Shown here piece after piece: positions 15,628 to 20,496 of a DNA stretch of 64,000 nucleotides. The notes under the pieces are model-generated. The model made no database searches, was not told the DNA's origin, and saw only the letters and a list, made by a program, of their open reading frames with translations. Each line of letters starts with the position of its first letter. The first letter of the stretch is position 1. Both the position numbers and the translations under genes were made by a program. Source of the stretch: Candidatus Poribacteria bacterium (GTDB lineage: Bacteria > Poribacteria > WGA-4E > WGA-3G); the NCBI GenBank assembly GCA_022824265.1, contig JAJEAG010000010.1:1-64000 (forward strand), given 5' to 3'.

Positions 15628-16983
15628 TTAACCCTGTGACCTACGCATCTGTTGGTTTTCTTTTGCCGAAACATCTATTCGTTCTGGATCAAGTATTGTC
15701 CGCAGGTCGGTTTCCATTTCATTTCTTATTGCGGTATATTCAGGGTTTGAAGCCAAATCTATGTTTTCATTCGGGTCAATTTCTAAGTTGAACAGCTGCG
15801 GTTGACTTCCAACATAATGGCATAGTTTGTAATTGTCACGTTTGAGCATAAATCCTGCGTTAAGCATGCCTCTATCATGGTATTCTGAGAAGACTGCACG
15901 TGATGATTCGTTTTGTTGTTGGGAAATTTTCAACAGACTTTCTCCCGGTAAATCAGTAGGTTTTTCCATATCTGCAATGTCTAATAATGTTGGTAAGACA
16001 TCAACCAAAGAGACATTCTGTGTTATTCGTTTGTTCTCACAAATAGGCATACGTAATATCAAAGGCACTTTTACTGCAGATTCGTAGAAACACTGCTTTT
16101 GCCATATACCGTGACTGCCTGCCATCTCACCGTGATCACTTGTATATATGACGACAGTGTTCTCACTTAATGATGATGTCTCAATTGCATCTAAGATTCG
16201 TCCAATCTGTGCATCAAGAGTTGAGACAAGCGCGTAATACGATGCTAATGCACAACGAACGATTTCCTCTGGTGGGGGAATGTCGTTCCGCCATGCCCAA
16301 CGGTGGTGCTGAATGATTGGATGTTGAGATTCAAGTGGTTCGTTCCATGTATCTGGTAAGGTTAGGTTATCTGGGTCATACAATGAGTAGAATTCAGGTG
16401 GAGCAATCAGTGGAAAATGTGGATGCATAAACCCGCAGTATAGCAGGAAAGGTTTTTCGCTTGGAGAGGCGGCTTTTGTTTGAAGGAAGTCCACTGCCAA
16501 ATCCGCCACGTTTCGGTCATATCTTGTATGTTCGTGGTCTCCTGGACCGCATTCAGCGACGTGTGAATTGGAACCTCTTTGTTCGTCTGGTGTGCGCTTA
16601 GGTGGTCTTCCACTTGTGTTCCTCCAGCGAGGGAGATCGTCTAACAATCGCTCAGAAAAACCGAGAAGCCTGTCCTTTCCATTGAAATGTGTCCGACCAC
16701 ACAATACCATTTGATAACCCTTCTCTGTCAGATAATCTCCCCATGTTTTATGCTGTCTATCCAAAATTGCTCCCAAATCCCAAGCATCAATCTGATGAGG
16801 ATAACGCCCCGTTAGCATTGACAAGCGCGAAGGTGTGCAGATTGGATAATTACAATATGCATTATCAAAGGTATAACTGTTTTCAGATAAACGGTCAAGG
16901 TGAGGTGTCTGGACAACAGGATGTCCGTTGTGCCCCATCACAGTTCCTGTATGTTCATCAGAAAAGAGAAAGACGATATTCAT
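15628..16983 (-). CDS. Type I sulfatase (CTPSR)
   Basis: A 451-aa sulfatase. MNIVFLFSDEHTG supplies metal ligands, CTPSR contains Cys49 (formylglycine precursor), GRTHF follows, and TSDHGEMAGSHGIWQKQCFYE closes the active site. The ATG at 16983 gives a typical N-terminus. An in-frame ATG at 16995 directly abuts AAGGA and is less likely. There is no signal peptide, as in many sulfatases of this type. The first 13 codons are exactly duplicated inside the scrap at 18043-18079. It ends 12 bases from the convergent cupin gene. Confidence 0.9.
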   Translation of the reverse strand: MNIVFLFSDEHTGTVMGHNGHPVVQTPHLDRLSENSYTFDNAYCNYPICTPSRLSMLTGRYPHQIDAWDLGAILDRQHKTWGDYLTEKGYQMVLCGRTHFNGKDRLLGFSERLLDDLPRWRNTSGRPPKRTPDEQRGSNSHVAECGPGDHEHTRYDRNVADLAVDFLQTKAASPSEKPFLLYCGFMHPHFPLIAPPEFYSLYDPDNLTLPDTWNEPLESQHPIIQHHRWAWRNDIPPPEEIVRCALASYYALVSTLDAQIGRILDAIETSSLSENTVVIYTSDHGEMAGSHGIWQKQCFYESAVKVPLILRMPICENKRITQNVSLVDVLPTLLDIADMEKPTDLPGESLLKISQQQNESSRAVFSEYHDRGMLNAGFMLKRDNYKLCHYVGSQPQLFNLEIDPNENIDLASNPEYTAIRNEMETDLRTILDPERIDVSAKENQQMRRSQG

Positions 16984-17030
16984 CCGATGTACCATTCCTT
17001 TGTAGAATCAGCAATATATCGCGACACATT

Positions 17031-17714
17031 TCAACTTCCTTTCTTATTGCAGAACACCAATATGAACAAGTTATCTTCTATCTGTTCAACGCGTCTACAA
17101 ATTAGATGTTTCTCAATGATATACTTGGCAAAGGCGACTGTCCAAAAATAAGATGGATAGTAGAACATGCCTTGGTCAGGAATTGTACTATGTCCTGCTA
17201 CAGAACCGTTCAATGAATCATAGCGATCCAGAAAAGCTGTTTCACCCACTCTCTTGATAAATTCATCATGCATAAATACAACAAAGAGACCTTTATTTGA
17301 TAAAATCTGTTTTAACTGGACTGTTAAGTTCTCCATCGTTTCATACGATATCTCAACTATATTTGAAGGGAATAGTGCCAGATCGAATGAATCCTCTCTG
17401 TAAGGGAGAGCACTTAAATCTCCGATATTGAATTGACATTGACTTTTTCTCTTCTTCGCCACCTTTTTGGCATGGAGGATTGGAATTTCCGCGCAATCAA
17501 TACCAGTTGGAATAGCTCCCATGTCTTCCATGGCAAAGGTGCATCTTCCAGCATTACAACCTAAGTCTAACACACGCATGCCGGGTTGTATTAACTTGCT
17601 CAGATGTTTTGTGTATCTATCGATAGTAGATTTTGATTTTGAGTTATCTGGGTCAGTTGTCGGATGTACACCAATAGCGTTATACAATTTACGAATCGAA
17701 TCTATCGTTTTCAT
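17031..17714 (-). CDS. Class I SAM-dependent methyltransferase
   Basis: A 227-aa methyltransferase. Motif I is VLDLGCNAGRC, followed by an acidic residue after the second strand (GIDCAE), GDLSALPYREDSFDLAL as motifs II and III, and the LSNKGLFVVFMHDE strand. It resembles the UbiE/Methyltransf_11 group. The substrate is unknown. The gene lies 47 bases upstream of a sulfatase on the same strand and could be cotranscribed. AAAGGA eight bases before the ATG supports the start. Confidence 0.85.
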   Translation of the reverse strand: MKTIDSIRKLYNAIGVHPTTDPDNSKSKSTIDRYTKHLSKLIQPGMRVLDLGCNAGRCTFAMEDMGAIPTGIDCAEIPILHAKKVAKKRKSQCQFNIGDLSALPYREDSFDLALFPSNIVEISYETMENLTVQLKQILSNKGLFVVFMHDEFIKRVGETAFLDRYDSLNGSVAGHSTIPDQGMFYYPSYFWTVAFAKYIIEKHLICRRVEQIEDNLFILVFCNKKGS

Positions 17715-17878
17715 ATCCTGCTTTCCTTTTAGTCCGAGTTGTGTAGTTTACACCTATTCTGATTGTATGAAGTATTCCAATATTTGTAGTAAAATTCGTG
17801 GTCCGATCTCATGTAAAACAAATTCAATCCGGTATACATTACAAATCTGCTTAGGTCAGGATAAGCATTTTGTCACGG

Positions 17879-18082
17879 CTAAAACTGAAGTAGAATTATT
17901 GGTGGATCTTTTATCAGCTGATAGGTTTCCTCTGTTACAACTTCTGAGAAAAATGGATCGAAAAATGCATCTGTAGTTTCTAAAAATTCTGGTAGATTCA
18001 TACCCATATAATTGTTACACGCATCACCACTTTCATCTACAACCTGTATGTTCATCAGAAAAGAGAAAGACGATATTCACCA
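17879..18082 (-). pseudogene. Chimeric scrap: sulfatase 5' end joined to DUF309 3' end
   Basis: Two unrelated gene fragments are joined. Bases 18043-18079 are identical over 37 bases to 16946-16982, the first 13 codons of the neighbouring sulfatase. Bases 17911-18047 match 19941-20077, the 3' part of the DUF309 gene, with about nine differences in 137 bases. On the minus strand the sulfatase frame stops shortly after the junction. The DUF309 frame stays open to a TAG at 17879-17881, ending in a diverged but related tail (TEETYQLIKDPP). The junction sits on the short shared run CTGT/TTGT. It cannot encode either protein. Confidence 0.8.
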
Positions 18083-18110
18083 ATTCTTCTATGAATAATT
18101 TGGTTGTTGA

Positions 18111-19052
<942 letters not shown>

Positions 19053-19438
19053 GATATGTACCTCAAAACTAAATTCATGATTAATAATGAATACATGACC
19101 TAATGCATATTTCATGCCAATTATGGACAGCATAAAAAGGTATCTATTCTTGTAAAATGATGATTATACTGACTAAAAAGTGGACAGTATTGTTCAAATA
19201 ATGGACAAAAAAGACAATGAATAGTGTTAAATTTATGTTCATGCTAATGTCATTCGATTTTGCATTATTTATCGTATACTGGTAAGTGTATATATGATAT
19301 AATATCTTTAGGAATAAAAGACAATGATATTAGAACTGGTATCAATTTTGCTCTGTTATTCTTATATTTCTAACGCAACATATAAATCAACCAAAATGTA
19401 TTTTATGATAATTATCTATATTACTAAAAAGGTGAGAA
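19053..19438. promoter_or_regulatory. Divergent control region of two cytochrome-like lipoproteins
   Basis: This 386-base region separates two divergently transcribed paralogues. It is very AT-rich and must contain both promoters. TGGACA occurs three times in the same sense (19124, 19181 and 19202), the first two within TATGGACAGCAT and AGTGGACAGTAT. This spacing would suit a shared regulator, though chance is not excluded. Confidence 0.35.
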
Positions 19439-19870
19439 ATGAATATAATTTACAGAATAAACGGATTTGCAGCGTTAATACTTTTGTTTGGACTTATAAT
19501 CTTCGTTTCAGGATGTGGGAAAAGTGTTGACGAATACGCAGTTGAGTTAGGTCTGATGTTTACCGATTCTACAGTTGGCAATAGACCTGATCCATCTTTT
19601 AATGCCGATATTTCACCGATTTTGGCACAAAGATGTGCAGTTGCGGGGTGCCACGTCGAAAATGGACCTGATGATGTTGATTTAAGAACTTATGCTACAA
19701 TTCAAAAAGGTGGAGAACATGGTGCTTTACTAATTGCGGGTAATGCCAAGGAGAGCGAACTTGTAGAGGAAATTGTTAAAGGCAAAATGCCTCCAGACGG
19801 TCCTCCCTTAGAAGTCTCTGAAATTCAACTCATAATTGATTGGATCAATAACGGAGCAAAGGAAAATTAA
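19439..19870 (+). CDS. Single-domain CX4CH cytochrome-like lipoprotein
   Basis: A 143-aa lipoprotein with a long hydrophobic helix and lipobox IFVSGC. One domain follows, with FNADISPILAQ, CAVAGCH (CX4CH), a KGKMPPDGPP element with a candidate axial Met, and QLIIDWINNGA. It is a clear paralogue of each repeat in the divergent poly-Asp protein. The family is known from outer-membrane or periplasmic proteins of Planctomycetes and Bacteroidetes that combine such domains. GGTGAG precedes the ATG. Confidence 0.8.
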   Translation: MNIIYRINGFAALILLFGLIIFVSGCGKSVDEYAVELGLMFTDSTVGNRPDPSFNADISPILAQRCAVAGCHVENGPDDVDLRTYATIQKGGEHGALLIAGNAKESELVEEIVKGKMPPDGPPLEVSEIQLIIDWINNGAKEN

Positions 19871-19905
19871 CCCTTTATGTAACTCAAGATGTTACCCACA
19901 TAATT

Positions 19906-20478
19906 TTAACCTAACTGTAGCGTAATCAATGGTTGTACCGTTATCTGCAGATAGGTGTTCTCTGTTACAACTTCTGAGAAAAATGGATTGAAAAACGCAT
20001 CTGTAGTTTCTAAAAATTCTGGTAGATTCATACCCATATAATTGTTGCACGCATCACCACTTTCATCTACAACTTGTCGTAATTTATCGCGTCCAGCAGT
20101 AGAGAGAGTTCGCAATGGACGCAGCATTCGCATGTGATATTTGATTAGAGATGCTGATACCTGAATTAACCCTTGCAGAAAAAGGCGATAGGTATCTTCC
20201 GCTTGATGCCATAACCCTTCCCATGTTTCATGTGCTTCCCACCAGTAGGCAAGGTTGTAGAGATCAACACCGTATAAATACGCTTCGTTCTCCCTCCACA
20301 TCTCTGGTGGAAGTGGTGTATCGTCATGTTCTTCCTCAATGCCGTAACTGTGTCCGAGTGGATCACGGATAGGATGTGGTGTAACACCTGGCACATGACG
20401 GTACGGTGGAAACGGTATTTCTGGACAATACCGATGCCAATTTGGATCAAAAGGTTGGGGTTGTTTGTGGCTATCCAT
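19906..20478 (-). CDS. DUF309 family protein
   Basis: A 190-aa protein. Its core GVDLYNLAYWWEAHETWEGL followed by YRLFLQGLIQVSASLIKYHM is the DUF309 signature, a helical domain with His and Glu residues that may bind metal. Function is unknown in the family. The start at 20478 is preferred over an upstream in-frame TTG. It lies 18 bases downstream of ugd on the same strand, probably in one transcript. The 3' part of the gene is duplicated at 17911-18047. Confidence 0.85.
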   Translation of the reverse strand: MDSHKQPQPFDPNWHRYCPEIPFPPYRHVPGVTPHPIRDPLGHSYGIEEEHDDTPLPPEMWRENEAYLYGVDLYNLAYWWEAHETWEGLWHQAEDTYRLFLQGLIQVSASLIKYHMRMLRPLRTLSTAGRDKLRQVVDESGDACNNYMGMNLPEFLETTDAFFNPFFSEVVTENTYLQITVQPLITLQLG

Positions 20479-20496
20479 CAGCAATATTAACCTGAA

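What the first reader, a model, noticed from the sequence alone, without database searches (positions are those of the whole stretch)
17879..18082. Chimeric DNA scrap from two neighbours, joined at microhomology
A 37-base exact copy of the sulfatase 5' end (16946-16982) is joined at CTGT to a 3' piece of a DUF309 gene (like 19941-20077). The DUF309 tail keeps its own diverged but open end, so it may be the remains of a paralogue rather than a simple copy. This records a local rearrangement that also flanks the cytochrome-like gene.
Basis: seen in the sequence. Interest (0 to 1): 0.55.

Follow-up and report, generated by a model that had tools for sequence, protein, structure and literature searches.

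The report
Seam between two stacked gene-slot alleles
A 200-base scrap of DNA in an uncultivated bacterium (Poribacteria) is most likely the fossil seam left where two alternative versions of the same stretch of chromosome were joined end to end; it probably codes for nothing, but it shows how neighbouring genes can be added and reordered.

Summary
At 17879-18080 the last 165 nt of the DUF309 gene (88% identical to 19913-20077) are fused to the first 38 nt of the sulfatase gene (37 exact, 16946-16982). A sister Poribacteria assembly (G009, JAJDWI010000062.1) carries the same fusion within 411 nt at 99% identity, so misassembly is very unlikely.

The 18 held genomes of the genus show what it is. 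Between DUF309 and the sulfatase lies a variable gene slot. Some relatives hold cytochrome-like genes there (allele A), one a methyltransferase (allele B), some both, one neither. The window holds A followed by B. The scrap is their seam: the sulfatase piece is A's right end, just behind the cytochrome gene; the DUF309 piece is B's left end, before the methyltransferase. In the sister's sequence the joint is an exact 5-nt microhomology (CCTGT).

Best reading: a microhomology joint at one end and homologous recombination in the sulfatase at the other stacked two alleles. Tandem duplication followed by replacement or loss remains possible. The roughly 3-kb composite differs by 1.4% between the two species, its flanks by 7.5%, so it was exchanged after they parted. 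The scrap shows no sign of function. An ordinary process, unusually legible.

The parts
18043..18080 (-). Orphan 5' end of the sulfatase gene, 38 nt from its start codon (GTG here, ATG in G009)
   Evidence: 37 of 37 nt to 16946-16982; start codon difference at 18080
18043..18047 (.). Joint, CCTGT: exact 5-nt overlap with the G009 DUF309 gene, 4 of 5 with the DUF309 gene of this genome
17879..18047 (-). Orphan 3' end of a DUF309 gene with its own stop codon (17879-17881)
   Evidence: 88% over 17883-18047 to 19913-20077; front 118/123, tail 24/41
17715..17878 (-). Spacer from the DUF309 piece to the methyltransferase, like the DUF309-MT spacer of relatives
   Evidence: shuffle p 0.0025-0.0715 in five comparisons; control 0.26-0.85
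17031..17714 (-). Methyltransferase gene (MT), cargo of allele B
   Evidence: Pfam Methyltransf_31, _25, _11 above cut-off; high-scoring match in 9 of 18 genus genomes
15628..16995 (-). Sulfatase gene (SULF), right anchor of the slot; the likely start is the ATG at 16981-16983
   Evidence: Pfam Sulfatase
18111..19133 (-). CYT2: two PSCyt1 (Planctomycete cytochrome C) stretches and a poly-aspartate C-terminus; cargo of allele A
19439..19870 (+). CYT1: one PSCyt1 stretch; opposite orientation to that in relatives; cargo of allele A
19906..20484 (-). Intact DUF309 gene, left anchor of the slot; its last 41 nt differ from the orphan piece
16934..19956 (.). Stretch of low divergence between G000 and G009 (composite island); outer limits are approximate
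   Evidence: 41 of 2845 nt differ, poly-Asp tract left out, against 320 of 4287 in flanks

Best explanation
The scrap is the seam, without function of its own, between two stacked alleles of one accessory-gene slot. The slot lies between the DUF309 gene and the sulfatase gene. Allele A is DUF309-CYT1-CYT2-sulfatase; allele B is DUF309-MT-sulfatase. A chromosome with allele A received allele-B DNA. On one side that DNA recombined homologously in the sulfatase 5' end. On the other side its DUF309 end was joined at a microhomology (CCTGT) to the resident sulfatase, about 13 codons inside it. The incoming copy gave the sulfatase a new intact 5' end; the old 5' end and the DUF309 3' piece stayed as fossils. 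This works like homology-facilitated illegitimate recombination, or like single-crossover uptake of a small circle closed at the same microhomology. Later the whole roughly 3-kb composite was exchanged between the two sister species, or reached both from a third, by homologous recombination in DUF309 and the sulfatase. Shown: the fusion; the alternative slot contents in relatives; spacers on both sides of MT that match relatives; the drop in divergence. Inferred: which allele was resident, the route of the DNA, the enzymes and the order of events.
For: Slot contents vary: seven contents in the 11 of 18 genus genomes with both anchors on one contig. The spacer behind the DUF309 piece resembles relatives' DUF309-MT spacers (p 0.0025-0.0715, five comparisons) while the sequence behind the intact gene does not (0.26-0.85). 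The MT-sulfatase spacer matches G014 and G017 (p 0.0002 each). The sulfatase piece starts 30 nt behind CYT2, as the sulfatase does in G002, G004, G005 (31-33 nt). The nearest relatives by the concatenated tree, G002 and G011, have CYT2 or its poly-Asp end directly before the sulfatase, which favours A as resident. DUF309 gene and piece are mosaic: front alike, tail different. G017 shows another sulfatase 5' stub (21 nt) behind MT.
Against: The DUF309 front is nearly identical in gene and piece (118/123 in G000, 121/123 in G009), which a donor of another lineage would not give without a close donor or later gene conversion; it suits a recent duplication. The 5-nt overlap is exact only with the G009 gene; most relatives read CAAG at that place, so it could be secondary, by conversion from the scrap. 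The CYT2-to-stub spacer match is weak: only G005 gives p 0.019 of six comparisons, and one of the two valid controls reaches 0.010. The MT-sulfatase spacer does not match G013 (p 0.70) or G006 (0.23), and one comparison with an MT-CYT spacer (G005) gives 0.05. No genome of this clade with plain allele B was found. The lacB tree places G011 elsewhere.
Confidence: 0.55

Rival explanations
1. Tandem duplication first: a stretch from inside DUF309 to inside the sulfatase was duplicated, the seam being the new junction; afterwards one cargo was lost or replaced in each copy.
For: The order sulfatase 5' then DUF309 3' is exactly the junction a tandem duplication makes. The fronts of gene and piece are nearly identical. 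A possible ancestor order, MT then CYT, exists in G003, G004, G005. In G017 a sulfatase stub and the sulfatase could have allowed a clean loss of CYT between them. The MT part diverged less than the CYT part (5/937 versus 31/1680, p 0.005), as if it had arrived separately.
Against: Tails of gene and piece differ at 17 of 41 nt, so at least one replacement from another allele is needed as well. G002 and G011, the nearest relatives in the concatenated tree, show CYT2 before the sulfatase; G002 has no close MT homologue, nor does the incomplete G011 assembly.
Confidence: 0.27
2. One replicative event with two template switches: from the resident DUF309 front into allele-A DNA by homology, then from the sulfatase start back to DUF309 by microhomology.
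For: Gives in one step two like fronts, two different tails and the microhomology joint.
Against: It makes B the resident allele, whereas G002 and G011 have the A-type neighbour of the sulfatase. No independent sign of the process.
Confidence: 0.12
3. Remains of a DUF309 paralogue.
For: The tail differs strongly from the intact gene and the frame is open in G000.
Against: In the 15 genus genomes with a match each has one DUF309 gene of this type, apart from the pieces in G000 and G009. The front is too alike. In G009 the frame has a stop.
Confidence: 0.03
4. Assembly chimera.
For: The own assembly is a draft of 100 contigs, and contigs of G011 and G006 end near poly-Asp tracts.
Against: The same seam is in G009 with its own point differences and a different poly-Asp tract.
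Confidence: 0.02

Closest known systems
[quoted passage not shown] passages seen)
   Same: Same two flanking genes with changing contents; a tract of low divergence whose limits fall inside the flanking genes; no integrase among the seven window proteins scanned.
   Different: Here two contents are stacked with a readable seam, and one joint is not homologous.
Homology-facilitated illegitimate recombination (HFIR; passages of PMC6382021; the original papers were seen only as citations there)
   Same: One homologous side and one joint at a short overlap (5 nt; 3-10 bp segments are described).
   Different: Known from transformation experiments; here inferred from a natural sequence, with a duplication. 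Natural competence of Poribacteria was not examined.
Tandem duplication-random loss, known from mitochondrial gene orders (listing, e.g. PMC5745709, start of abstract only)
   Same: Repeated gene ends, non-coding remnants and a changed gene order.
   Different: Tails and spacers point to two alleles rather than two equal copies.

Membership tests
Recombination-driven gene hotspot | Variable contents between the same flanking genes in related genomes | tested here: met
   Seven contents in 11 of 18 genus genomes with both anchors on one contig
Recombination-driven gene hotspot | No integrase or other mobile-element gene in the slot | tested here: inconclusive
   None among the seven window proteins scanned with Pfam; slots of relatives were not scanned
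Recombination-driven gene hotspot | Homologous recombination at the flanking genes | tested here: met
   Divergence 41/2845 inside against 320/4287 outside, p 1e-34, limits in DUF309 and sulfatase; one pair of genomes only
HFIR | Joint at a short microhomology | tested here: met
   CCTGT, 5 of 5 with the G009 gene, 4 of 5 with the G000 gene
HFIR | Homologous anchor on the other side | tested here: inconclusive
   Sulfatase 5' end present twice, 37 of 37 nt; that a crossover took place there is inferred
HFIR | RecA-dependent, during natural transformation | not testable with these tools
   Needs experiments
Tandem duplication-random loss | Junction of duplicate ends in the expected order | tested here: met
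   Sulfatase 5' followed by DUF309 3'
Tandem duplication-random loss | Both copies alike apart from decay | tested here: not met
   DUF309 tail 24/41 against front 118/123, p 3e-8; a later replacement could explain it

The most novel reading that the evidence does not exclude
The conserved 5' end of this sulfatase is a repeated landing point: unrelated cargoes are stacked in front of it without an integrase, each time rebuilding the gene start and leaving a short 5' stub (38 nt here, 21 nt in G017 in the opposite cargo order). Such stubs would then be a general mark by which integrase-free gene stacking can be counted.
Probability: 0.15. Interest if true: 0.5.

Novelty: new member of a known kind. 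Interest (0 to 1): 0.28.

Why it matters
It is a case where a rearrangement can be read at base level in uncultivated bacteria: both remnants still point to the allele they came from, and the seam, the exchanged tract and the alternative contents are all visible. It illustrates how a gene slot can gain cargoes and change gene order with what looks like housekeeping recombination. It does not change any general view.

Tried and rejected
Pure duplication-random loss was my first model (note); the tails and the MT-sulfatase spacer made it second choice. A functional small gene was considered: the DUF309 frame of the piece is open here but has a TAG in G009, and the sulfatase frame ends after 15 codons (read), so no product is kept. 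A chance match was excluded by the E-values.

Faulty rows: the spacer extraction misread G013 and G017 (2103 and 475 nt); four rows are void, and the MT-sulfatase test was repeated. The script also gave CYT2-sulfatase spacers of 125, 9 and 5 nt for G003, G007 and G017; the last may be misread. The shuffles keep base composition only. In one search the G009 piece entered the small front tree one base short at its start; I draw nothing from that tree. G006 and G014 have MT and DUF309 on different contigs, so their order is unknown; G006 contig C86 carries a threonine-aldolase-like frame (name by recall) behind CYT2 and may be chimeric. Papers: four searches; none of the listed titles concerns this locus, but only open-licence papers are held.

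Full report
What is there. Window 17879-18080 holds two gene ends on the minus strand: the first 38 nt of the sulfatase gene (37 exact) and, after a CCTGT joint, the last 165 nt of the DUF309 gene at 88%. A search of the own assembly with 17879-18110 found, besides itself, only the two source genes.

Not an artefact. Sister genome G009 (JAJDWI010000062.1) has the same 411 nt at 99%, with its own point differences and its own poly-Asp tract.

The slot. Of 18 genus genomes, own included, 15 gave a DUF309 match, 14 the sulfatase at E <= 1e-140 and 9 a high-scoring methyltransferase (16 of 18 had some match at E <= 0.001, the rest being weak). In 11 of 18, DUF309 and sulfatase lie on one contig; one of these, G007, has an internally shortened sulfatase and is not among the 14. 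Contents: CYT1(inverted)-CYT2-seam-MT in G000 and G009; CYT1-CYT2 in G002, G007, G010; CYT2 in G012; MT in G013; MT-CYT2 in G003 and G004; MT-CYT1-CYT2-CYT2 in G005; none of these genes in G016. Of the other seven, G006, G014 and G017 are split over contigs, G011 and G015 lack one anchor in what was found, G001 and G008 both.

Surroundings of the pieces. The DUF309 piece is followed by a spacer that resembles the DUF309-MT spacer of relatives (shuffle p 0.015, 0.0105, 0.0715, 0.0115, 0.0025 for G013, G005, G004, G003, G017); the sequence behind the intact gene gives 0.26-0.85. The piece keeps the TTTTAG or CTTTAG ending seen in relatives with MT next to DUF309, and in several without it, while the intact gene ends otherwise. 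The sulfatase piece begins 30 nt behind CYT2, as the sulfatase does in G002, G004 and G005 (31-33 nt); its spacer alone is no proof (one of six comparisons at p 0.019, one valid control at 0.010). The MT-sulfatase spacer matches G014 and G017 (p 0.0002 each), not G013 (0.70) or G006 (0.23); comparisons with MT-CYT spacers gave 0.23, 0.10 and 0.05. So both neighbourhoods occur as alternatives in the genus, and the window carries one after the other.

Mosaic. Intact gene and piece agree at 118 of 123 nt and then 24 of 41 in G000, at 121 of 123 and 24 of 41 in G009 (p 3e-8 and 3e-10). The front was shared recently or kept alike by conversion; the tail goes with the cargo. The pieces are closer to the G009 gene (122 and 121 of 123) than to the G000 gene (118 and 117), which hints that the composite arose nearer to G009.

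Exchange. From the DUF309 tail to the first codons of the sulfatase G000 and G009 differ at 41 of 2845 nt (poly-Asp tract left out); the flanks UGDH, DUF309 body and front, sulfatase body and lacB differ at 320 of 4287 (p 1e-34). No difference lies between 16934 and 17297 nor between 19823 and 19956. The composite was exchanged after the species parted, or came to both from a third.

Second case. In G017 MT is followed by the usual spacer and the first 21 nt of a sulfatase (20 of 21 to its own sulfatase, counted by eye), then a CYT-type upstream stretch; CYT2-sulfatase stand on another contig. That would be a stack in the opposite order, again with a sulfatase 5' stub. At the end of a G006 contig a poly-Asp-like run precedes the spacer and MT, which may be another A-then-B order.

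Mechanism. The product equals one joint at a short overlap plus one homologous crossover in the sulfatase (HFIR, passages of PMC6382021), or a circle closed at CCTGT and taken up by a single crossover. Tandem duplication with later replacement or loss gives the same seam and cannot be excluded; the lower divergence of the MT part (5/937 against 31/1680, p 0.005) would suit a stepwise history. In the MT tree the two genomes group with G013 (support 0.974) on a long branch, which does not suggest a distant donor. Hotspots without mobile elements that change by recombination at flanking genes are known (PMC5635113, passages).

Noticed in passing
window 18111-18266: CYT2 ends in a run of about 51 residues, 50 Asp and 1 His, coded by 17 copies of a 9-nt repeat; G009 has a longer, more His-rich version and relatives have similar tails.
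   Followed up: partly
window 19439-19870: CYT1 is inverted relative to CYT1 of relatives with the same neighbours.
   Followed up: no
L075:440-490 (G017): Independent 21-nt sulfatase 5' stub behind MT, joined to a CYT-type upstream stretch.
   Followed up: partly
window 19191; L036:7366, 7387; L037:7376; L039:6641: A motif like GTCCATTTTTTGAACA lies upstream of cytochrome genes in several genomes, sometimes repeated; perhaps regulatory.
   Followed up: no
L079:3038-3644 (G007): The sulfatase is internally shortened: only residues 5-156 and 395-452 match.
   Followed up: no
window 15628-16945: Outside its first 37 nt the sulfatase differs by 10% between G000 and G009, most in the stretch 337-437 nt from its start (81% identity), more than the neighbours UGDH and lacB.
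   Followed up: no
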